DNA from: Azospirillum formosense
GTDB lineage: Bacteria > Pseudomonadota > Alphaproteobacteria > Azospirillales > Azospirillaceae
Direction of reading: 5' to 3'
Length of the DNA: 64,000 nucleotides
Assembly (NCBI RefSeq): GCF_040500525.1
Contig: NZ_CP159403.1
Span: forward strand, 1,462,501-1,526,500
Part shown: positions 29,598-63,794 of the stretch, in pieces
How positions within the stretch are numbered: the first letter of the stretch is position 1
How the letters are laid out: the number at the start of each line of letters is the position of its first letter
Position numbers and translations under genes: made by a program
Notes under the pieces: model-generated
The model's database searches: none
What the model was told of the DNA's origin: nothing
What the model saw: the letters and a program-made list of their open reading frames with translations, nothing else

Positions 29598-30674
29598 ATG
29601 GACGAGATTCCGCGGCAGGCCCTGAAAGGACGGGGAGCGATCAGCAACCTGACCTCCCGCTACGAGCGGGAGACGCGGGTGCTGGCCGATGACGGCTGGG
29701 GCGGGAACGACGCGGTGACGGAAACCGTCCCGACCCAGGTCTTCGACGACGGCGCCCGCTCGGTCCTGTCGAAGAACACGTCGCCCGACGTGATCTTCGA
29801 GCGGTCGGTGAACCCCTACCGGGGGTGCGAGCACGCCTGCATCTACTGCTTCGCCCGCCCGACCCACGCCTATCTCGGCCTGTCGCCGGGGCTGGATTTC
29901 GAGACGAAGATCTTCCGCAAGGCGAGGGCGGCCGAGCTTCTCGCGGCGGAGCTTCGCGCCAGGTCCTACCGCTGCCAGCCGCTGGCGCTCGGTGCCAACA
30001 CCGATCCCTACCAGCCCATCGAGCGGGAGCAGCGCATCACCCGCGCCGTGCTGGAGGTCTGCCGCGACTTCAACCAGCCGGTGATGATCATCACCAAGTC
30101 GGCGCTGGTCCTGCGCGACCTCGACATCCTGGCGCCGATGGCGGCCAAGGGTCTGGTCAACGTCGCGCTGTCGGTCACCACGCTCGACCGCGACCTCGCC
30201 CGCCGGATGGAGCCGCGGGCCAGCACGCCGCAGCGGCGCCTCGCCGCCATGCGCGACCTGACGGCGGCCGGCGTGCCGGTGGCGGTGCTGGCCAGCCCGA
30301 TGATCCCGGCGCTCAACGACCACGAACTGGAAGCGATCCTGACCGCGGCGGCGGAGGCCGGGGCGACTCAGGCCAACTACATCCTCCTGCGCCTGCCGCT
30401 GGAGATCAAGGACCTGTTCGAGGAATGGCTGCGCGAGCACGCGCCCAACCGCGCCGAGCGGGTGCTCAGCCTGATCCGCCAGTGCCGCGAGGGGGAATTG
30501 TACCAATCCCAATTCGGCAGCCGCATGAAGGGCTCCGGCCCGGTGGCGGAGCTGCTGGCGAAGCGGTTCAAGCTGGCCTGCAAGCGCCTCGGCCTCAACG
30601 CCCGCGACGCCGCCCTCAACTGCGCCGACTTCCAGCCCCCGCCGGCCCGCGGCGACCAATTGACGATGTTCTGA
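29598..30674 (+). CDS. PA0069-family radical SAM protein
   Basis: A 358-residue protein of the spore-photoproduct-lyase-related radical SAM group. The 4Fe-4S motif CEHACIYC (C-x3-C-x2-C) follows SVNPYRGCEHA, preceded by the family's N-terminal VLSKNTSPDVIFERS. Later elements are GANTDPYQPIEREQ, MIITKSALVLRDLDIL and SPMIPALNDHELEAIL. Radical SAM enzymes make a 5'-deoxyadenosyl radical. This subgroup's substrate is unknown; the SPL relationship and the upstream LexA-type box suggest a nucleic-acid damage role. ATG 29598 follows weak upstream extensions. Confidence 0.9.
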   Translation: MDEIPRQALKGRGAISNLTSRYERETRVLADDGWGGNDAVTETVPTQVFDDGARSVLSKNTSPDVIFERSVNPYRGCEHACIYCFARPTHAYLGLSPGLDFETKIFRKARAAELLAAELRARSYRCQPLALGANTDPYQPIEREQRITRAVLEVCRDFNQPVMIITKSALVLRDLDILAPMAAKGLVNVALSVTTLDRDLARRMEPRASTPQRRLAAMRDLTAAGVPVAVLASPMIPALNDHELEAILTAAAEAGATQANYILLRLPLEIKDLFEEWLREHAPNRAERVLSLIRQCREGELYQSQFGSRMKGSGPVAELLAKRFKLACKRLGLNARDAALNCADFQPPPARGDQLTMF

Positions 30675-30818: not shown

Positions 30819-32735
30819 ATGGCCACGATCGGTGAAGCCCTGGCCATCGCCTTCGCCAATCATCGCGCCGGCCGCGTGTCCGAGGCGGCCGTTCTCTACC
30901 GCCGGATCCTGGAAGCCGACCCGGCGAACCCCAACGCCGTGTACCTGCTGGGGATGGCCGAGTGGCAGGCCGGCCGGCCGGCCGCGTGCCTGCCCCTGGT
31001 CGGGCGTGCGCTTCGGCTCAATCCCGCCTGGACCGAGGCGCGCGCCAACCGGGCCGCCATCCTGGACAAGGCCGGCCGGCCCGCGGAGGCCGCCGCGGAC
31101 TGGCGGCGGCTGACGCTCGCCGATCCGGGCCATCGGCAGGCCTGGCGCAACCTCGGCGACGCCTTCCAGGCCCAGGGCGATGCCGGGACCCCGCAAGCCG
31201 TTCGGGCGCTGAGCCGCGCCGCGCGCCTCGTTCCCGGCGTGGCCGAGGTTCATCACGATCTGGGGGTGGTTCTCCGCCGCGCCGGCCAGCTCGACGAGGC
31301 GGTGGACAGCCTGCGCCGCGCCATCGCGGTCAGGGCCGATCTGGCGCCCGCCCACATGAACCTGGGCAACACCCTGCTCGAACGCGGCGATGACGCCGCG
31401 GCCCGGGCCAGCCTGCGGCGCGCGCTGGCGCTCAGCCCGGCCGGCCCGGAGCACTGGTACAACGCCGGCAACGCCCTGTACGCCCACGGCGATCCGCTGG
31501 AAGCCCTGACCGCCTACCGGCGCTCGGCGCGGCTCGGGCTGGCCCTCGCCCGCCTTCGGGTGGCGGCGGTGCTGAGCGATCTGGGCCGCCTGTCCGAAGC
31601 CGAAGGCGAACTGATCGAAAGCCTGCCGGTTCCCGGCGCCGATGTGCCCCTCAGCATCGAATTGCTGACCAACGTCTTCCTGCGCGGCGACCGGCTGGCC
31701 GAAGGGCGGGCGTTCTTCACCCGGCTGGCCTCGACGCCGCTCGGCGGCGCGGCCTATCGCGGGGAATGCCTGACCGCGCTCGCCGCGCTCGACCTGCGGG
31801 ACGGCGCGCCACGGGCGGCCCGCGACCGGCTGGCGGCGGTCCGCGGCGACAACGGCTGGTTCTTCACCGTGAAGTCGCTCGCCGCCTTGCGCGCGACGCT
31901 GGCCGAGCAGGGGCTCCAGCTCGTCCGCCCCGCCGCCGCTGGGGCGGACGGCGGGCACCGGCCACCGCGCGTGACGTCGTCGTCGCTGGCCACCCGTGGC
32001 CGCTTCGCCCACACCGTCCTGGAGTACATCCTGGTCCGGCTCTACGCCGAGAAATACGGCTTCTTGCTGGAGACGCCCGACTGGGTGGGCGGCGCCTTTT
32101 TCGCGCTGGACGATCCGCCGCAGAGCGGCCCGCTGCCGCCGCTGCTGTTCGCCCGCCGCACCCTCAACGATCTGGTGAGCGGCACCGCGAAGCGGGCGCC
32201 GATCGCCGACCGCGACATCCTCTCGCCCCTGTTCCTGTTCGAGCACAAGCGGGAGTACCGGCAGCGGGTCCAGTCCTGGCTGAGGCCGCGCCGGGTCTGG
32301 GAGCCGCAGCTCGCCCCGGCGGTCGAGCGGTTGCGGGCGGCGGGAAACACGGTGGTCGCGCTCCACATCCGGCGGGGCGACTTCGTGACGTCCAATTATC
32401 CGATCACCGAGACCGCCTGGTACGTCGACTGGCTGCGCGGCTGGTGGCCGCGCCTCGACCGGCCGGTGCTCTATGTGGCCAGCGACGACGTCGCGGCGGT
32501 CCGCCACGCCTTCGCGGAGTTCCATCCCCTGACGCGGGCCGACGTCGTGGAGGAATGGGCCGGGTTGGACTTCCTTCAGGACTTCCATGTGCTGATGAAC
32601 GCCGACGTGGTCGGCACCAGCGCCGCCAGCGGCTTCAGCGCGCTGGCCGCCCGTCTCAACACCCGCGCCCGCCTGTTCGTCGAGCCGGACGTCGCCGCCC
32701 GCCGCATCCGGCCCTTCGAACCCTGGACTCCCTGA
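30819..32735 (+). CDS. TPR protein fused to GT11-like (fucosyltransferase-type) domain
   Basis: A 638-residue two-part protein. Residues 1 to about 330 are tetratricopeptide repeats (GEALAIAFANHRAGRVSEAA, NPNAVYLLGMAEWQAGR and so on). The C-terminal 250 residues carry VVALHIRRGDFV (His about 515), the H-x-RRGDF donor-binding motif of alpha-1,2-fucosyltransferases (GT11), then LYVASDDVAAV and the late DFHVLMNADVVGTSAASGFS. This implies transfer of a nucleotide sugar onto a protein or glycan held by the TPR. GAGGGAG before ATG 30819 supports the start. Ends 17 bp from the convergent next gene. Confidence 0.82.
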   Translation: MATIGEALAIAFANHRAGRVSEAAVLYRRILEADPANPNAVYLLGMAEWQAGRPAACLPLVGRALRLNPAWTEARANRAAILDKAGRPAEAAADWRRLTLADPGHRQAWRNLGDAFQAQGDAGTPQAVRALSRAARLVPGVAEVHHDLGVVLRRAGQLDEAVDSLRRAIAVRADLAPAHMNLGNTLLERGDDAAARASLRRALALSPAGPEHWYNAGNALYAHGDPLEALTAYRRSARLGLALARLRVAAVLSDLGRLSEAEGELIESLPVPGADVPLSIELLTNVFLRGDRLAEGRAFFTRLASTPLGGAAYRGECLTALAALDLRDGAPRAARDRLAAVRGDNGWFFTVKSLAALRATLAEQGLQLVRPAAAGADGGHRPPRVTSSSLATRGRFAHTVLEYILVRLYAEKYGFLLETPDWVGGAFFALDDPPQSGPLPPLLFARRTLNDLVSGTAKRAPIADRDILSPLFLFEHKREYRQRVQSWLRPRRVWEPQLAPAVERLRAAGNTVVALHIRRGDFVTSNYPITETAWYVDWLRGWWPRLDRPVLYVASDDVAAVRHAFAEFHPLTRADVVEEWAGLDFLQDFHVLMNADVVGTSAASGFSALAARLNTRARLFVEPDVAARRIRPFEPWTP

Positions 32736-32752
32736 CGTTTCCGTCCTGAGAT

Positions 32753-34594
32753 TTACGTCCCGACGCCCTGCGCGTCGGGTTCCGGGCGGGACCGCGCGAG
32801 GGCCTGGAGAGCGGCGCGGACGCGGCCGACGACGGGCGCCCAGTCGCCGCGCCGGTCCTGGCGGAACAGGCGCATGGTCGGGTACCACGGCGTGCACATC
32901 CCCTGGTCCAGCCAGCGCCAGTCGGGGGCGAAGGGCAGCACCGTCCAGACCGGGCGGCCAAGCGCTCCGGCCAGATGGGCCGGCCCCGTGCAGGAGCTGA
33001 TGACGAGGTCGAGGTTTTCCATGATCGCCGCAGTGTCGGCGAAGTCCGAAATCTCATCGCCGAGGTCGGTGAAGGACGGCGGCAGCGGCCCGCACGTCTC
33101 CAGATCCTGCCGCCCCGCCCCCTTCTGCAGGCCGAAGACCGTGACGCCCGGAACGTCCAGCAGCGGAAGGAACGCCTTCAGGCGCGGCGAACGGATGCGG
33201 TCGGCCTTGAAGCCGGGGTTTCCCGCCCACACCAGCCCCACCCGCAGCCCCGTCCGCCGACCGGTCGGCGACCCCATGCGTTCCGCCCAGCGCGTCACCA
33301 GGTCCGGCTCGGCGCGCAGGTAGGGAACCTCGGCGGGGATGGTGTAGAGCATGGTGCCGAGCCGGTGCGGCAGGCTGGCCAGGGCGTCGTGCGCGTCGTG
33401 CGGTGGCGGCGGGGCGAACCGGCTGACCACGCCCTCGATGCCCGGCATGGCGGAGAGCAGGCGGACGAGCTGGCTGTTGCACTCGATGAGGACGCGCACG
33501 CCCCGCGCCTGGAGCTGCGGGGCGAAGCGGGCGAACATGATGGTGTCGCCCACCCCCTGCTCGTCATGGACCAGCAGGGTCCGGCCGGTGAGGTCGGAAC
33601 CGTCCCAGGCGGGCGAGGCGAAGCTGCGCCGGGGCGACGGGAAGTCGGCCATGCGCGACCGCCATTCGTACTCGGCGAACCCCTCCTCCAGCTCGCCCTT
33701 GATCAGCAGCCCGAAGCTCAGCGCGGTGTGTGCCTCCGCCAGGGACGGGTCGAGCCGGACCGCGGTCCGCGCCAGGGCGATCATCTCGTCGACGCGCATC
33801 AGATCGCGGGCCGCCAGCGCGAGGTTGAGGTGGGTGTGCGCCGCGCCCGGCTGCAGCGCGATGGATTGCCGGAAGCAGGCCGCCGCCTCGTCGAGCCGCC
33901 CCAGGTCCTGAAGCGTGACGCCCAGGTTGTTGAGGACGCCGGGATCGTCCGGCGCGAAGCCGAGCGCGCAGCGGTAGTGGCGCACCGCCTCCTCGGCCCG
34001 GCCGAGACGGCGAAGCGCCATCCCCAGGTTGGCGTAGGCGGCGACCGACGAGGGCGCCATCCCGAGGAGCACCATCAGTTCCTCGATCGCCTCCTCGGCG
34101 CGGCCGCCCAGGATGAGCGCCTGCGCGAGCATCAGCCGCTGGTCGGTCAGCCGCGGCTTGAGGTGGAGCAGCCGGCGCAGAGCGGTCGCGGCGTCGCCGT
34201 GCCGGCCCTGGTCCGACAGCACGTTGGCGAAGTTGTTGAGCGCGTCGCCGGAGCCGGGGTCGAGCGCCAGGGCCCGGTGGCAGGCCGCCGCGGCCTCGTC
34301 GCGCCGGCTGAGCCGACGCAGCGCGCTGGCGAGGTTGGAGAAGCAGGCCGCGTTGTCGGGGGCGGAGCGGAGGGCCTGCCTCATCCACTCCACGGCCTCG
34401 CCCGGCCTGCCGCCCTGAAGCGCCAGCGCGCCCAGCAGATGCAGGGCGTCGGGGTGATGGGGGTGGTCGGCGAGGACCCGCCGGTAGGCGCCTTCCGCCT
34501 CGGCCAGCCGGCCGGCCCCGTGATGGGCGAGACCCGTCGCGACGAGCGTGGCCGGGTCGGGTCGATCAAGGGTGGCTTTGGTCGGGAAGGCCAT
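32753..34594 (-). CDS. TPR protein fused to GT9-like glycosyltransferase domain
   Basis: A 613-residue protein: about nine TPR units (first GLAHHGAGRLAEAEGAYRRV) to near residue 330, then a GT-B domain of the ADP-heptose-transferase-like GT9 type with LLVHDEQGVGDTIMFARF, GLRVGLVWAGNPGFKADRIR, FGLQKGAGRQDLE, DFADTAAIMENLDLVIS and TPWYPTMRLFRQ. In the usual (V/S)DT-x-x-AHLAG motif it has SSCTGPAHLAG, with Cys in place of Asp. ATG 34594 is chosen over a 258-bp low-quality extension. It is divergent from the SPINDLY/OGT gene. Confidence 0.84.
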   Translation of the reverse strand: MAFPTKATLDRPDPATLVATGLAHHGAGRLAEAEGAYRRVLADHPHHPDALHLLGALALQGGRPGEAVEWMRQALRSAPDNAACFSNLASALRRLSRRDEAAAACHRALALDPGSGDALNNFANVLSDQGRHGDAATALRRLLHLKPRLTDQRLMLAQALILGGRAEEAIEELMVLLGMAPSSVAAYANLGMALRRLGRAEEAVRHYRCALGFAPDDPGVLNNLGVTLQDLGRLDEAAACFRQSIALQPGAAHTHLNLALAARDLMRVDEMIALARTAVRLDPSLAEAHTALSFGLLIKGELEEGFAEYEWRSRMADFPSPRRSFASPAWDGSDLTGRTLLVHDEQGVGDTIMFARFAPQLQARGVRVLIECNSQLVRLLSAMPGIEGVVSRFAPPPPHDAHDALASLPHRLGTMLYTIPAEVPYLRAEPDLVTRWAERMGSPTGRRTGLRVGLVWAGNPGFKADRIRSPRLKAFLPLLDVPGVTVFGLQKGAGRQDLETCGPLPPSFTDLGDEISDFADTAAIMENLDLVISSCTGPAHLAGALGRPVWTVLPFAPDWRWLDQGMCTPWYPTMRLFRQDRRGDWAPVVGRVRAALQALARSRPEPDAQGVGT

Positions 34595-34914
34595 GCGTCC
34601 GTGCTGTGTCAATGCGCTCTGGGCGAGGGGCCGGGCCGTCGGTCGGATGGGCAGCGGACCGACGGGCGGCAGAATAGCAGAACGCGGACGCCGATCCACA
34701 GCGCGCGCCGCCGGCGCCGGCCGCTCGATTCCGCTGGAACGCGCCGCGCGCTTGTCGCACCTTCCCGAGGGGCGGGGACCGCCCGCCGACGGGCAGCGAC
34801 GGGAACGATGAGGATGGGAGGGTGCCGAGACAGCCGCGATCATCGGGGGCACGACTCCGATCGTCGCCAGCGGTTCCCGGCGCCCGGCGACCCGGCCGCC
34901 TCGACGTGTGCGCC
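34595..34914. promoter_or_regulatory. Divergent intergenic region between two TPR-GT genes
   Basis: A 320-bp region holding the promoters of two divergent glycosyltransferase genes. The only clear structure is a perfect inverted repeat at 34636-34665, listed separately. No consensus sigma-70 pair, sigma-28 or sigma-54 promoter stood out. Confidence 0.4.
34636..34665. repeat. Inverted repeat CCGTCGGTC / GACCGACGG
   Basis: Perfect 9-bp arms (34636-34644 and 34657-34665) with a 12-nt loop, about 42 bp upstream of the minus-strand TPR-GT9 start codon. It could be a leader hairpin or an operator. Confidence 0.5.
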
Positions 34915-36822
34915 ATGACGGCCGACGTCGCGGCGGCGGTGCGGAGCTTCGCCGCCGCGCTGGCCCATCATCAGGCCGGGCGGCTCGACGCCGCCGAGGC
35001 GGCCTACCGGGCGATCCTGCGCGACGACCCCGGGCACGCCCACGCCAACAACAATCTGGCCATCCTGCTGCGCACCGCCGGGCGGCGGGACGAGGCGGTC
35101 GCCTTGTACCGCCGGGCCGTCGCGGCGCTGCCGGACGACGCGCCGATCCGCAGCAACCTGTCCTGCGCGCTGACCGACCTCGACCGGCCGGCGGAGGCGC
35201 TGGCGGCGCTGCGCGTCGCGCTGTCCCTGAGCCCGGACTACGCCGACGCCTGGTTCAACGCCGGCAACCTCCTGAAGGCCGCCCGCCAGACCGACCGGGC
35301 GCTCGCCGCCTACCGCCGGGCGGTGCGGCTGAAGCCCGGCATGGGCGGCGCGCACAGCAACATGGCCGATCTGTTCCGGGATCGCGGGGAGTCGAGCCGC
35401 GCCGTGGAGGGATACCGGGCGGCGATCCAGGCGCAGCCCGACCTGCCGCAACCCGTCGTCAACCTCGGCGAGGCGCTGAAGGAGCAAGGGCGGATCACCG
35501 AGGCCATCGCGACCTTCCAGGGCGGGATCGAGCGTCACCCCGATCTGGCCCTGCTGCACTCCAACCTGCTGCTCGCCCTGCATTACACGCCCTGGGTGCC
35601 GCCCGAGGTCATCGCCCGCGCCCACGCGCACTGGAACGAACGGCACGCCCGGCCGCTGATGCCGCGGGACCGGCGGTTCGCCAACGACCGCGACCCGGAC
35701 CGCCGGTTGCGGGTGGGCTACGTCTCGCCCGACTTCCGCGCCCATGCCTGCGCCCATTTCATCGAACCCCTGCTGCGCGCGCACGACCGCGGCGCGGTCG
35801 AGATCGTCTGCTACGCCACCTCGGACCATCACGACGCGGTGACCGACCGCCTGCGGAGCCTGGCCGACGGGTGGCGGTCGCTGGAACCCGTGGACGACGC
35901 GGCGGCCGCCGCGTTGGTCGAGCGCGACCGCATCGACATCCTGGTCGATCTGGCCGGCCACACGGCGCGCGCCCGGCCGCTGCTGTTCGCCCGCAAGCCG
36001 GCCCCGGTCCAGGTCGCGTGGCTGGGCTATCCCGACACCACCGGCATGCCGGCGATCGACCACCGCCTGACCGACGCGGTCGCCGACCCGCCGGGCCCGA
36101 CCGACGCCTGGCACGCCGAGCGGCTGGTGCGCCTGCCCAGGGGGTTTCTCGCCTTCCAGCCCTTGCGCGCCGCCGCCGCGGGCGAGGAACCGCCGGCGCT
36201 GGCCAACGGCTTCGTGACCTTCGGGTCGTTCAACAACGCCGCCAAGGTGACGCCGGAGGTGCTGCGGGTCTGGTCGGCCATCCTGACGCGCCTGCCGTCC
36301 GCCCGCCTGCTTCTCAAGAGCCGCGCCTTCGACGACCCGCCGACCCGGGAGCGCTATCTCCAGCAATTCGCCGGCAACGGCGTGGACCGCGGCCGTGTCG
36401 ACCTGCTCCCCACGATGGACAGCATCGACGCCCATCTGCGGGCCTATGGCCGGATCGACATCGGCCTCGACCCGTTCCCCTACAACGGGACCACCACGAC
36501 CTGCGAGGCGCTGTGGATGGGGGTGCCGGTGATCACGCTGGCCGGCGGCCACCACGTCGCGCGGGTCGGCGCCAGCCTGCTGACGCACTGCGGGCTCGCC
36601 GAGCTGGTCGCCGCGGACGAGGCCGGCTACGTCGAGACGGCCGTCGCCCTGGCCCGTGACACCGCGCGCCTGGCCGCGTTGCGCGGCGGCATGCGGGAGC
36701 GGATGGAGGGGGCGCCGCTCAACGACCACCGCGGCTTCGCGGCGTCGGTCGAGACGGCCTATCGCGCCATGTGGCGGTCCTGGCTCGCGCGCGACACGGA
36801 GGAAGCGCCGCCGGAACGCTGA
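34915..36822 (+). CDS. TPR / SPINDLY-type O-GlcNAc-transferase-like protein (GT41)
   Basis: A 635-residue protein with TPR units over residues 1 to about 235 and a full GT41 catalytic region. Visible motifs are LRVGYVSPDFRAHACAHFIE, ILVDLAGHTARARPLLFARK, APVQVAWLGYPDTTGMPAID, FVTFGSFNNAAKVTP, then IDIGLDPFPYNGTTTTCEAL and WMGVPVITLAGGHHVARVG. These give the catalytic His after the TPR and the UDP-sugar site of OGT/SPINDLY. Bacterial members glycosylate proteins, including flagellins, or make O-fucose links. ATG 34915 is preferred to an earlier in-frame start. No flagellin gene is near. Confidence 0.92.
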   Translation: MTADVAAAVRSFAAALAHHQAGRLDAAEAAYRAILRDDPGHAHANNNLAILLRTAGRRDEAVALYRRAVAALPDDAPIRSNLSCALTDLDRPAEALAALRVALSLSPDYADAWFNAGNLLKAARQTDRALAAYRRAVRLKPGMGGAHSNMADLFRDRGESSRAVEGYRAAIQAQPDLPQPVVNLGEALKEQGRITEAIATFQGGIERHPDLALLHSNLLLALHYTPWVPPEVIARAHAHWNERHARPLMPRDRRFANDRDPDRRLRVGYVSPDFRAHACAHFIEPLLRAHDRGAVEIVCYATSDHHDAVTDRLRSLADGWRSLEPVDDAAAAALVERDRIDILVDLAGHTARARPLLFARKPAPVQVAWLGYPDTTGMPAIDHRLTDAVADPPGPTDAWHAERLVRLPRGFLAFQPLRAAAAGEEPPALANGFVTFGSFNNAAKVTPEVLRVWSAILTRLPSARLLLKSRAFDDPPTRERYLQQFAGNGVDRGRVDLLPTMDSIDAHLRAYGRIDIGLDPFPYNGTTTTCEALWMGVPVITLAGGHHVARVGASLLTHCGLAELVAADEAGYVETAVALARDTARLAALRGGMRERMEGAPLNDHRGFAASVETAYRAMWRSWLARDTEEAPPER

Positions 36823-36850
36823 GCGCGGGCCTTTTCACCGACTGTTCCCT

Positions 36851-38164
36851 TCACCGGCCGGTGCGGCGGCGGACCTCCGCGCGCAGGGCGTCCGCCGCCC
36901 GGGCGAACACCGGTTCCCAGTCCTGGTCGGGACCCTGGCGGAACAGGCGCATCGTCGGGTACCAGGGGGTGCGGTCGCCGGAAAAGCCGTAGATCCAGTA
37001 GGGGACGTGCTGCACGAGGTTCCAGACCGGCGTGCCGATGGACCCGGCGAGGTGCGCCACCGAACTGTCGGTCATGATGACGAGGTCGAGCTGCTCCAGC
37101 ATCGCCGCCGTGTCGGCGAAATCGTCCAGGTCGGGACCGAGCGGAGTTACCAGATGGCCGGCGACGCCGCTGTCGGCGAGTTCGGCCTCGGGCGGCCCTT
37201 TCTGAAGGCTGTAGAGCCGGACGCCGGGAATCTCGGCGAAGCGCAGGAAACGGGCGAGGCTGGTGGCCCGCCGGCCGTTGTCGGCGAAGGTCACCCGCCC
37301 CGACCACACGATCCCGACGCGCAGCGTGCCCGGCTCGCGCGCGCCGAGGCGGCGGGCGGCCTTCCCGCGGGACTCGTCGGGGATGGTCAGGCCGACCGGC
37401 GGCGGGATCGAGGCCAGCGTGGTGCCGAACAGGCCGGGCAGGCTCATCTGCGACGCCTCGACGTCGAAGGCCGGCGGCGGCTTCCCCGGCGGCAGGACGG
37501 CGTCGGCCCCCAATCCCGACAGCACCCGGCGCAGCTCCGGATGGCATTCGTAAAGCACCCGGCCGCCCCGCGCCTTGACCAGCGGCACGTAGCGCGCCGC
37601 CAGGATGGCGTCGCCGAACCCCTGTTCGGTGAACAGGAAAAGCGCGCGCCCGTCCAGCGGACCGCCGTTCCAGGCCCGGTCCGATGGTGGCCGGCCATGG
37701 TAGGAGGCCAGTCCGCGCCGGGCCTCGTAATCGGTGAAGCCGTGGACGTAATCGCCGATCTGGAGCCGGGCCAGCGCCCGCTCCCATCGCAGCTCGGGCG
37801 TGCTGGTCCCGCCCGCCGCCGCGCGCTCGATCATCGCGAGCGTGTCCTTGAAGCGGCCCGCCTTGCGCAAGGCCACGACGCTGTTGAAGAGATAGGCCGG
37901 GGCGTCCGGTTCGAGCCGAAGCGCTTCCGAGTGCGCGGCCAGCGCCTCGTCGAAGCGGCCGGCCTCCACCAGGGCGTTGCCGAGATTGCTCCAGATGCCG
38001 GCGGTGGCCGGAGCAACCTCCAGCCCCCGCCGGTGGCAGGCGATGGCGCCCTCCAGCTTTCCCGCGCGGCGGAGGAAATGGCCGAGCGTGCTCCAGGCGG
38101 CACCGTCACGCGGGTTGGCCGCGAGGGCGGCTTCCAGCGTGGTCGTGGCCTGTGCGTGGTCCAT
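36851..38164 (-). CDS. TPR protein fused to GT9-like glycosyltransferase domain (short)
   Basis: A 437-residue relative of the 32.8-34.6 kb gene with only about three TPR units (residues 10-115) and the same GT9-like domain: FLFTEQGFGDAILAARYVP, LRVGIVWSGRVTFADN, YSLQKGPPEAEL, DFADTAAMLEQLDLVIMTD and TPWYPTMRLFRQ. Here the motif is the expected TDSSVAHLAG with Asp present, unlike the longer paralogue. It is convergent with the OGT-like gene (28-bp gap). It closes the alternating glycosyltransferase block. Confidence 0.86.
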   Translation of the reverse strand: MDHAQATTTLEAALAANPRDGAAWSTLGHFLRRAGKLEGAIACHRRGLEVAPATAGIWSNLGNALVEAGRFDEALAAHSEALRLEPDAPAYLFNSVVALRKAGRFKDTLAMIERAAAGGTSTPELRWERALARLQIGDYVHGFTDYEARRGLASYHGRPPSDRAWNGGPLDGRALFLFTEQGFGDAILAARYVPLVKARGGRVLYECHPELRRVLSGLGADAVLPPGKPPPAFDVEASQMSLPGLFGTTLASIPPPVGLTIPDESRGKAARRLGAREPGTLRVGIVWSGRVTFADNGRRATSLARFLRFAEIPGVRLYSLQKGPPEAELADSGVAGHLVTPLGPDLDDFADTAAMLEQLDLVIMTDSSVAHLAGSIGTPVWNLVQHVPYWIYGFSGDRTPWYPTMRLFRQGPDQDWEPVFARAADALRAEVRRRTGR

Positions 38165-38279
38165 CCTCGTCTCCCCGGCGCGCCGTGGCCGAACGGTGAG
38201 GCCACGCCGCGAGCATAGACCCGTTTGATCGCACGGCTGTCAACCACGCGCCACCGCCGGTCAACCGGAGTCCGGCCGG

Positions 38280-61697: not shown

Positions 61698-61781
61698 CCC
61701 GGAGTCACGACGCCGGAGTCATGATGCCGGAGTCATGATGCCGGAGTCATGATGCCGGAGTCATGACGCCAAGGTCACGAC
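61698..61781. repeat. 14-bp tandem repeat (about 6 units)
   Basis: Four near-identical units GCCGGAGTCATGAT/C at 61712-61767, with degenerate units on each side (61698-61711 and 61768-61781). The last unit overlaps the stop codon (61775-61777) of the minus-strand methyltransferase gene. Confidence 0.85.
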
Positions 61782-63118
61782 GCAGGAAGCGCGGTCAGCC
61801 GGATCGCCACCTGTTTGGTGTGCGGGCTGACGGCGATGATCTCCCAGGCCGCACCGGACCCGGCCACATATTCCAGGAATGCGCGGTACTCGTCCTCGCG
61901 CCACGTCCGGTTCCCGATGAACTCGTCGAAGACCAGCACCGTCCCCGCCCGGAAGCGCGGCGCCAGGGCCGTCAGCACCGTCCGCGCCGACGAGTAGATG
62001 TCGCTGTCCACATTGACGAAGCGCACCGCGCCGTCGTGGGCGGCCAGGAAGGGCGGCAGCGTGTCCTCGAACCAGCCCGCGTGCAGCACCGCGTTGCCGC
62101 GCACCGGCGGCAGGCTCTTGCCCGTGCTGAGCACGCCGCGCGGCGCGTTCACCCAGCCTTCCGGCAGCCCCTCGAACGAATCAAAGCCGTGCACGGCTTG
62201 GCCGGCCATGTCGGCGATCTGGTTCAGCGAGGTGCCGCGGCGCACGCCGAACTCCAGTACCAGACCGAGCACCTCCGCCCGCTCCAGCGCGAAGCGCAGC
62301 AGGTCCGCCCCGACGCCGAAGAGCCGGACGTCCGGTGCCAGATGCGGGCGGATCGCCGCCACCGCCTCCACCAGGGCCAAGCGCTTCGGCTGACCCGCCA
62401 GCTTCTCGCCATGCAGCGCCGCGGCCTCCGCGTCGCGGCCCAGCAGCAGCAGGTAGGCGCACAGGAAGCCCCAGTATTTGCCCGCCGCGCCCGGACACTC
62501 CGCAGCCCGACGCAGGCGGCGCAGCGCGTCCTCCACCCCGTTCAGGCCCAGCGCCACGGCGTGGCTGCCGAACCACGCGGCGGCGTGCTCCGGATCGTCG
62601 GCCAGCCGCTCGTCGAAGACCGCCAGCGCGCCGGCGGCGTCGCCGAGATGGGCGAGGCTGACCGCCCGCTCATAGAGGATGTCCGCCGAGCGGTTCCCGG
62701 CGGCCAGCGCCTCGCCGGTCACCCGCAGGGCCTCCTCGTAGAGGGCGTCGCGCCGGTAGGCGCCGGCCAGCGCCTCGCGGAGGCCGGGGAAAGCCGGATC
62801 GGCCGCCGCGACCCGCTCCAGCCAGCGCACCGCCTGGAGGCGGTCCCCGCCCGCCAGAACGGCCTGGGCGAGACGCTGGAGGGTCTCCGCATGGGCCGGC
62901 TCGCGCACCAGGGCGCGGCGCAGCGCGGCGGTGGCGGCCGCAGCATCGCGACGGCCGAGCGCGGCCAGGCCGGTCAGCCGGTCGCGCTCGGCGGATGCGC
63001 CGGCCTCCGGCGCGGAGTCCCGCAGCAGGCGCGCCGCCTGCCGGAAATGCCGCGCCTCGATCAGGCGGCGCGCCTCGGTCAGAACCTCATCCACGGGAAA
63101 AACCTGTCGGTCGGGCAT
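61775..63118 (-). CDS. TPR protein fused to TylF-like O-methyltransferase domain
   Basis: A 447-residue protein. TPR-like helices run to about residue 240 (EARRLIEARHFRQAARLLRD, AALRRALVREPAHAETLQRL, AALAVFDERLADDP). The C-terminal domain is a class I SAM methyltransferase of the macrocin O-methyltransferase (TylF/MycF) type: VLEFGVRRGTSLNQIAD (SAM loop), VHGFDSFEGLPEGW, VRFVNVDSDIYSSARTVL, TVLVFDEFIGN (metal site). It probably methylates a sugar hydroxyl. It repeats the TPR-plus-glycan-enzyme plan of the 31-38 kb block. ATG 63118 is the natural start; the C-terminus runs into a 14-bp repeat. Confidence 0.87.
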   Translation of the reverse strand: MPDRQVFPVDEVLTEARRLIEARHFRQAARLLRDSAPEAGASAERDRLTGLAALGRRDAAAATAALRRALVREPAHAETLQRLAQAVLAGGDRLQAVRWLERVAAADPAFPGLREALAGAYRRDALYEEALRVTGEALAAGNRSADILYERAVSLAHLGDAAGALAVFDERLADDPEHAAAWFGSHAVALGLNGVEDALRRLRRAAECPGAAGKYWGFLCAYLLLLGRDAEAAALHGEKLAGQPKRLALVEAVAAIRPHLAPDVRLFGVGADLLRFALERAEVLGLVLEFGVRRGTSLNQIADMAGQAVHGFDSFEGLPEGWVNAPRGVLSTGKSLPPVRGNAVLHAGWFEDTLPPFLAAHDGAVRFVNVDSDIYSSARTVLTALAPRFRAGTVLVFDEFIGNRTWREDEYRAFLEYVAGSGAAWEIIAVSPHTKQVAIRLTALPAS

Positions 63119-63271: not shown

Positions 63272-63346
<75 letters not shown>

Positions 63347-63347
63347 T

Positions 63348-63423
63348 GGGGCCGTAGCTCAGATGGGAGAGCGCCTCGTTCGCAATGAGGAGGTCAGGGG
63401 TTCGATCCCCCTCGGCTCCACCA
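63348..63423 (+). tRNA. tRNA-Ala (anticodon CGC), CCA encoded
   Basis: Acceptor GGGGCCG pairs with CGGCTCC and includes the G3-U70 wobble, the alanine identity element. Anticodon loop TTCGCAA on CCTCG/TGAGG; T-loop GTTCGATC; ends A-CCA. 76 nt. Separated from tRNA-Thr by one base. Confidence 0.95.
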
Positions 63424-63522
63424 ACTTCTTCGGCGGTTGGTTGGTTGACTTGAGTAAGTTGGGTAAGGTTGAATTTAGTGCTTGCTTCGGCGGTCTTTGT
63501 TCTTTAGAAGGTCGCCTACGAC

Positions 63523-63599
<77 letters not shown>

Positions 63600-63644
63600 C
63601 TTTCTTGTGGTTCAGGTCAAGTTTGGTTTGGTATCTCGCGGTTT

Positions 63645-63719
63645 GGTCCTGTAGCTCAGCGGGAGAGCACTACGTTGACATCGTAGGGGTCACTGGTTCA
63701 ATCCCAGTCGGGACCACCA
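63645..63719 (+). tRNA. tRNA-Val (anticodon GAC), CCA encoded
   Basis: Acceptor GGTCCTG pairs with CGGGACC; anticodon loop TTGACAT on CTACG/CGTAG; T-loop GTTCAATC; ends A-CCA. 75 nt. Confidence 0.95.
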
Positions 63720-63720
63720 T

Positions 63721-63794
63721 TGGGGGATCGTCTAGCGGTAGGACAGCGGACTCTGACTCCGCCAGCCTAGGTTCGAATCCTAGTCCCCCAACCA
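63721..63794 (+). tRNA. tRNA-Gln (anticodon CTG), CCA encoded
   Basis: Acceptor TGGGGGA pairs with TCCCCCA; the weak U1-A72 pair is typical of tRNA-Gln. Anticodon loop CTCTGAC on GCGGA/TCCGC; T-loop GTTCGAAT; ends A-CCA. 74 nt. Last gene of the array. Confidence 0.94.

What the first reader, a model, noticed from the sequence alone, without database searches (positions are those of the whole stretch)
30819..38164. Four TPR-glycosyltransferase genes in alternating orientation, plus a TPR-methyltransferase elsewhere
Over 7.3 kb, four proteins share an N-terminal TPR array but end in different transferase domains (GT11-like, GT9-like, GT41/OGT-like, GT9-like). Strands alternate +,-,+,- with convergent gaps of only 17 and 28 bp. 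A fifth TPR-fused glycan enzyme (TylF-like methyltransferase) is at 61.8 kb. This looks like a protein- or glycan-modification set in which TPR modules present the acceptor and each domain adds or decorates a different sugar. No flagellin, S-layer or pilin gene is present to name the target. The domain calls are from visible motifs; the joint function is inference.
Basis: partly seen in the sequence, partly recalled or inferred. Interest (0 to 1): 0.68.

Follow-up and report, generated by a model that had tools for sequence, protein, structure and literature searches.

The report
Split sugar-coating cluster for giant adhesin
Four neighbouring Azospirillum genes make enzymes that probably put sugars, very likely including fucose, on a giant secreted adhesive protein; relatives show that they are the two ends of a larger gene cluster whose middle part, with the adhesin gene, now sits on another replicon of this genome.

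Summary
Four TPR proteins in +,-,+,- order carry real transferase folds. G1 has a GDP-fucose fucosyltransferase fold (NodZ/FUT8-like, GT11-related). G2 and G4 are GT9-type. G3 is GT41 and resembles plant SPINDLY, a protein O-fucosyltransferase, more than OGT; the SPY active-site residues tested are kept except S496.

In relatives the pairs G1-G2 and G3-G4 are usually the ends of a ~20-kb cluster of about ten transferase genes. In 18 of 20 such loci a giant, Ser/Thr-rich Ig-like/RTX protein lies within about 2 kb of G3. A second arrangement joins G1 and G3 orthologs to a type I secretion pair, GDP-fucose synthase and GDP-mannose dehydratase. In this genome the middle block and the adhesin gene lie on contig C3, and the 320-bp G2-G3 gap keeps decayed pieces of the lost block.

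Best explanation (inferred): cytoplasmic TPR transferases fucosylate and decorate the giant adhesin before type I export. The substrate and all sugars are unproven. The methyltransferase near 61.8 kb is on the minus strand, and nothing links it to this set.

The parts
30819..32735 (+). G1: TPR array plus C-terminal GDP-fucose fucosyltransferase-type domain (GT11/GT23-like, HxRRGDF motif)
   Evidence: TPR calls; profile hit to FUT8 E 1.2e-5; GT11 sub-threshold in 17 of 18 relatives; AF2 model pLDDT 90.2, best fold match NodZ 3six E 2.7e-9
32753..34594 (-). G2: TPR array plus GT9-type domain; likely start at 34594
   Evidence: AF2 model pLDDT 82.4 matches GT9 3tov, WaaF, WaaC, TibC; Asn ladder 5 of 9
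34668..34877 (.). Scar in the G2-G3 gap: decayed pieces of the lost middle block (34668-34713 from upstream of GT9b; 34703-34877 from GT9c)
   Evidence: 86-95% identity over 43-46 bp in G001, G004 and G009 and 86-89% over 73 bp, 76-78% over 95-113 bp
34915..36822 (+). G3: TPR array with Asn ladder plus GT41 domain, SPINDLY-like; likely start at 34915
   Evidence: PF13844 E 2.8e-53; SPY 7y4i E 4e-148; active-site residues in 40 orthologs; Asn at 34-residue spacing in 6 of 7 positions
36851..38164 (-). G4: short TPR array plus GT9-type domain, paralogue of G2
   Evidence: 39% identity to G2 over 441 aa; alignment A2
38165..38279 (.). Junction where relatives carry the giant protein gene between G4 and the acyl-CoA dehydrogenase gene
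   Evidence: Alignment to G004 and G009 breaks at about 38252-38276 and resumes about 9-10 kb further on in the relatives

Best explanation
The four genes are the remaining ends of a conserved cluster that glycosylates a giant surface adhesin. TPR superhelices hold the unfolded Ser/Thr-rich adhesin in the cytoplasm. The SPINDLY-like enzyme G3 starts O-glycans with fucose from GDP-fucose, G1 adds a further fucose (or another GDP-sugar), and the GT9-type enzymes G2 and G4 and the other cluster enzymes add further sugars. The modified protein then leaves by type I secretion. In this genome the middle block and the adhesin gene were moved to another replicon, so the pathway is split over two replicons. 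Shown: folds, orthology, gene neighbourhoods, the scar, and genes for making GDP-fucose. Inferred: substrate, donor sugars, order of steps, export route.
For: G1 fold matches only fucosyltransferases in the 50 listed hits. G3 is closest to SPY and 40 of 40 orthologs keep H495, N661, K665, H728, Y744, T748 and T749 of SPY (residues from PMC9715652). Asn ladder in G3 and G2. In type-A relatives a giant Ser/Thr-rich, Big_13/RTX protein abuts the cluster in 18 of 20 loci. In type-B relatives G1 and G3 orthologs lie with T1SS (17 of 20 loci), GDP-fucose synthase (18 of 20) and GMD (13 of 20). No lipid-linked polymerase or flippase gene was seen between the radical-SAM and acyl-CoA dehydrogenase flanks of type-A loci. 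Own genome: adhesin and middle block on C3, GMD, GDP-fucose synthase and two T1SS pairs on C5. G1, G3 and G4 occur together. Related layouts in Niveispirillum and a Caulobacteraceae MAG.
Against: No biochemical evidence. Y744 is also Tyr in XcOGT and TtOGT, so it does not fix fucose as donor (PMC9715652). S496, important in SPY, is Ala in the window protein. GDP-fucose is also used for bacterial polysaccharides. No T1SS gene is within the fetched type-A stretches. One cluster copy (G011 C5) adjoins flagellar hook-type genes instead of the giant protein. Co-occurrence is not corrected for relatedness. Nothing indicates the donor of G2 and G4.
Confidence: 0.57

Rival explanations
1. The set glycosylates flagellar proteins (flagellin, hook or hook-associated proteins) rather than an adhesin.
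For: In G011 C5 the cluster copy adjoins a FlgE-type hook protein, FlgK and a FlgL-like protein, two of them with 21-23% Ser+Thr.
Against: Only this one of the loci examined has flagellar neighbours; 18 of 20 type-A loci have the giant protein. The same genome has a second cluster copy next to the giant protein.
Confidence: 0.13
2. The enzymes build a polysaccharide (LPS O-antigen, capsule or exopolysaccharide), and the giant protein is a chance neighbour.
For: GDP-fucose, GT4 and GT9 enzymes are common in polysaccharide synthesis (established knowledge); the own-genome GMD and GDP-fucose synthase sit on C5 among surface-polysaccharide-type genes.
Against: TPR arrays with Asn ladders in G3 and G2 and a GT41 enzyme, a family whose characterised members act on proteins (PMC9715652, PMC10507012); no flippase or polymerase in the conserved block; repeated adjacency to the giant protein and T1SS.
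Confidence: 0.15
3. The four genes are unrelated products of a large TPR-transferase family expansion and have no joint function.
For: The family is large, with about 10 to 30 GT9-like hits per genome. Modules differ between lineages: G2 orthologs are missing from type-B loci.
Against: Gene order is conserved over about 20 kb in many species, G1, G3 and G4 occur together across the genus, and related layouts recur in Niveispirillum.
Confidence: 0.1

Closest known systems
SPINDLY (SPY), GT41 nucleocytoplasmic protein O-fucosyltransferase of plants and protists
   Same: TPR plus GT41 layout, best sequence match, Asn ladder and nearly all tested active-site residues of G3 (PMC9715652).
   Different: Bacterial; shorter TPR array; S496 is Ala in half of the orthologs; donor and substrate untested; sits in a cluster with other transferases and a secreted giant protein in relatives.
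HMW1C-type N-glycosyltransferases (GT41) acting on HMW1-like adhesins
   Same: Works like: a cytoplasmic GT41 enzyme modifies a large exported adhesin (PMC10507012).
   Different: HMW1C has a different N-terminal domain (AAD, no TPRs) and links glucose to Asn; G3 scores 27.5 bits against a cut-off of 1000 for that model.
BAHT family (TibC, AAH): GT9-fold protein heptosyltransferases of autotransporter adhesins
   Same: GT9-type fold match of the G2 domain (4rap); acts on Ser/Thr-rich adhesins (PMC4358343).
   Different: No four-cysteine iron-finger in G2 or G4 (one invariant Cys in alignment A2) and TPRs instead of the N-terminal beta-barrel.
NodZ / FUT8 / GT11 fucosyltransferases
   Same: Fold, HxRRGD motif and C-terminal motifs of G1.
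   Different: Fused to TPRs; 10-15% identity to the solved structures; below the Pfam GT11 cut-off.

Membership tests
SPY-type GT41 (for G3) | TPR array followed by a GT41 catalytic domain | tested here: met
   PF13844 E 2.8e-53 and TPR matches
SPY-type GT41 (for G3) | Closer to SPY than to OGT | tested here: met
   497.7 bits to SPY against 400.2 to OGT, although OGT has more TPRs to match
SPY-type GT41 (for G3) | Catalytic-site residues H495, S496, K665, Y744, T748 of AtSPY | tested here: inconclusive
   All conserved in 40 of 40 orthologs except S496 (Ser in 20, Ala in 20; window Ala)
SPY-type GT41 (for G3) | Transfers fucose from GDP-fucose to Ser/Thr of proteins | not testable with these tools
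   Needs an enzyme assay; GDP-fucose genes are present
GDP-fucose fucosyltransferase superfamily, GT11/GT23-like (for G1) | GT-B-type fucosyltransferase fold with the HxRRGD motif | tested here: met
GT11 proper, Pfam PF01531 (for G1) | Score above the curated cut-off | tested here: not met
   17.0 bits against 23.9
GT9 (for G2 and G4) | GT9 fold | tested here: met
   Predicted for G2: top matches 3tov, WaaF, WaaC; G4 by 39% identity to G2
GT9 proper, Pfam PF01075 (for G2 and G4) | Score above the curated cut-off | tested here: not met
   G2 18.9 bits against 22; G4 no match
BAHT heptosyltransferases (TibC) | Four-cysteine iron-finger motif | tested here: not met
   Only one invariant Cys in alignment A2 (motif from PMC4358343)
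HMW1C-type N-glycosyltransferases | Match to the NGTferase model at its cut-off | tested here: not met
   27.5 bits against 1000
Type I-secreted giant repeat protein as neighbour and candidate substrate | Giant repeat protein with C-terminal RTX repeats, and a T1SS pair linked to orthologs of the cluster genes | tested here: inconclusive
   RTX repeats E 1.3e-51 and Big_13 E 1e-68 in the own-genome C3 protein; T1SS within 0.6 kb of G3 in 15 type-B loci, but not in type-A stretches; secretion itself not tested

The most novel reading that the evidence does not exclude
A bacterial counterpart of plant SPINDLY works inside a multi-enzyme set of TPR transferases that builds fucose-based O-glycans on a giant adhesin before type I secretion: a form of cytoplasmic protein glycosylation for which no description was found in the papers searched.
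Probability: 0.38. Interest if true: 0.8.

Novelty: new variant of a known kind. Interest (0 to 1): 0.64.

Why it matters
SPINDLY-like and OGT-like proteins are widespread in bacteria, but their substrates and donors are mostly unknown (PMC9715652 notes that XcOGT and TtOGT show little or no O-GlcNAc activity on the bacterial substrates tested). This locus offers a concrete candidate substrate, donor and partner enzymes in culturable, plant-associated bacteria, so the question becomes directly testable. It would also give root-colonising Azospirillum a candidate glycosylated surface adhesin.

Tried and rejected
The methyltransferase at 61775-63094 as part of the set: 23 kb away, minus strand, not seen in the conserved clusters examined; rejected. 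BAHT membership of G2/G4: no iron-finger; rejected. HMW1C-type membership of G3: far below cut-off; rejected. A PDB profile search with the GT9 alignment gave only a weak 3tov match (E 0.16), so a fold search was used. Literature searches for Azospirillum TPR transferases, TPR transferases with type I secretion, and bacterial O-fucosylation of adhesins found nothing describing this cluster; the library holds open-licence papers only. Co-occurrence p-values are not corrected for phylogeny. Three loci (G033 C3, G002 C45, G012 C21) have neither a giant protein nor T1SS in the fetched stretch, only GDP-fucose synthase. No formal null was computed for the adjacency to giant proteins.

Full report
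Observation. The four ORFs, strands and short convergent gaps are as described. Likely starts are 30819 (G1), 34594 (G2), 34915 (G3) and 38164 (G4). All four carry TPR arrays. The fifth gene is on the minus strand at 61775-63094, with a TylF-like domain and only a weak TPR match.

What the domains are. G3 matches GT41 (E 2.8e-53), and its best solved relative is SPINDLY (E 4e-148) rather than OGT (E 1.3e-118). The residues named in the SPY structure paper (PMC9715652) were checked in 40 orthologs: H495, N661, K665, H728, Y744, T748 and T749 are kept in all, T747 in 39, and S496 is Ser in 20 and Ala in 20; the window protein has Ala. G3 has Asn at 34-residue spacing in 6 of 7 positions and G2 in 5 of 9 (0 of 500 shuffles each; G1 and G4 are not significant), like the substrate-binding Asn ladder of SPY. 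G1's C-terminal domain has no confident Pfam match, but a profile of 18 relatives hits human FUT8 (E 1.2e-5), 17 of 18 relatives match GT11 below its cut-off, and the model (pLDDT 90) matches NodZ first; all 50 listed matches are fucosyltransferases. G2's model (pLDDT 82) matches GT9 structures, WaaF, WaaC and TibC. G4 is a paralogue of G2 (39%).

The cluster in relatives. Searches of 45 Azospirillum genomes and fetched neighbourhoods show two arrangements. In type A (brasilense-like) the order is radical-SAM gene, G1, G2, GT11b (about 940 aa), GT4, GT9b (1190-1290 aa), GT41b, GT9c, TPR-GT4, G3, G4, giant protein, acyl-CoA dehydrogenase, with variations in more distant species. The giant protein has about 24-29% Ser+Thr, no Cys in the long examples, Big_13 and SWM-type repeats and, in the own-genome copy, C-terminal RTX repeats. 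Of 20 type-A loci, 18 have it 0.5 to 2.0 kb from G3; G011 C5 has a Ser/Thr-rich flagellar-type ORF there instead, and G006 is split like the window. In type B (oryzae/lipoferum-like, 20 loci) G1 and G3 orthologs lie with a type I secretion ABC protein and HlyD (17 loci), GDP-fucose synthase (18), GMD (13), GT4 and TPR-GT4, and in seven loci a giant Ser/Thr-rich protein within the fetched stretch. Niveispirillum loci, A. lipoferum paralogues and a Caulobacteraceae MAG show related layouts. Giant Big_13 proteins are few per genome (four loci in this one), so repeated adjacency is unlikely by chance. Orthologous loci are not independent events, and no formal null was computed.

This genome. The window lies on contig C2 (1.7 Mb). 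The middle block (TPR-GT4, GT9c, GT9b, GT4, GT11b; GT41b was not found there) and the giant protein are on C3 at 217757-237959. The 320-bp G2-G3 gap holds decayed pieces of GT9c and of the stretch upstream of GT9b, and G4 now directly adjoins the acyl-CoA dehydrogenase gene. The window arrangement is therefore derived and is shared with G006. GMD is at C5:5210-6274, GDP-fucose synthase (79% identity to the type-B protein) at C5:83647-84612, and two T1SS ABC/HlyD pairs are on C5.

Do the genes go together? At the identity thresholds used, G1 is in 36, G3 in 37, G4 in 38 and G2 in 23 of 45 genomes. G1 and G3 are both present in 36 and both absent in 8 (Fisher p 4e-8); G3 and G4 are both present in 37 and both absent in 7. 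G2 marks type A only.

Mechanism. Best-supported reading: TPR arrays hold the unfolded Ser/Thr-rich adhesin in the cytoplasm, G3 and G1 use GDP-fucose, GT9-type and other enzymes extend or decorate, and the protein leaves by type I secretion. Folds, neighbourhoods and the genome split are shown; substrate, donors, order and export are inferred. What it works like: HMW1C on HMW1 (PMC10507012) and TibC on TibA (PMC4358343). Membership in either family is not met.

Verdict. Observation confirmed; interpretation partly supported, corrected in scope and extended. A new variant of cytoplasmic adhesin glycosylation is the likeliest case, and bacterial SPINDLY-type O-fucosylation is the most novel reading that the evidence does not exclude.

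Noticed in passing
G000 C1:678338-684978 and C3:219711-226351 (L215/L216, L038/L056): A 6.6-kb part of the giant adhesin gene is 99.1% identical on two replicons of this genome: a recent copy or gene conversion.
   Followed up: partly
L043 (G011 C5:429142-435348): A second cluster copy in G011 adjoins FlgE-type hook, FlgK and FlgL-like genes with high Ser/Thr content: a possible change of substrate.
   Followed up: partly
G008 C2:1876560-1878435: G3 is found as two overlapping matches in this genome, so it appears frameshifted there, while the neighbours are intact.
   Followed up: no
L038:7926-11786 (GT9b), L044/L045 and L046/L047 (GT41b-type): GT9b proteins of 1190-1290 aa and GT41b-type proteins of about 920 aa carry long N-terminal extensions that start like another glycosyltransferase domain; not identified.
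   Followed up: no
window 61775-63094 and 63272-63794: TylF-like methyltransferase gene on the minus strand next to a run of five tRNA genes.
   Followed up: partly
window 29598-30674: A radical SAM protein gene flanks G1 in many type-A genomes at 95-97% identity and marks that end of the cluster.
   Followed up: partly
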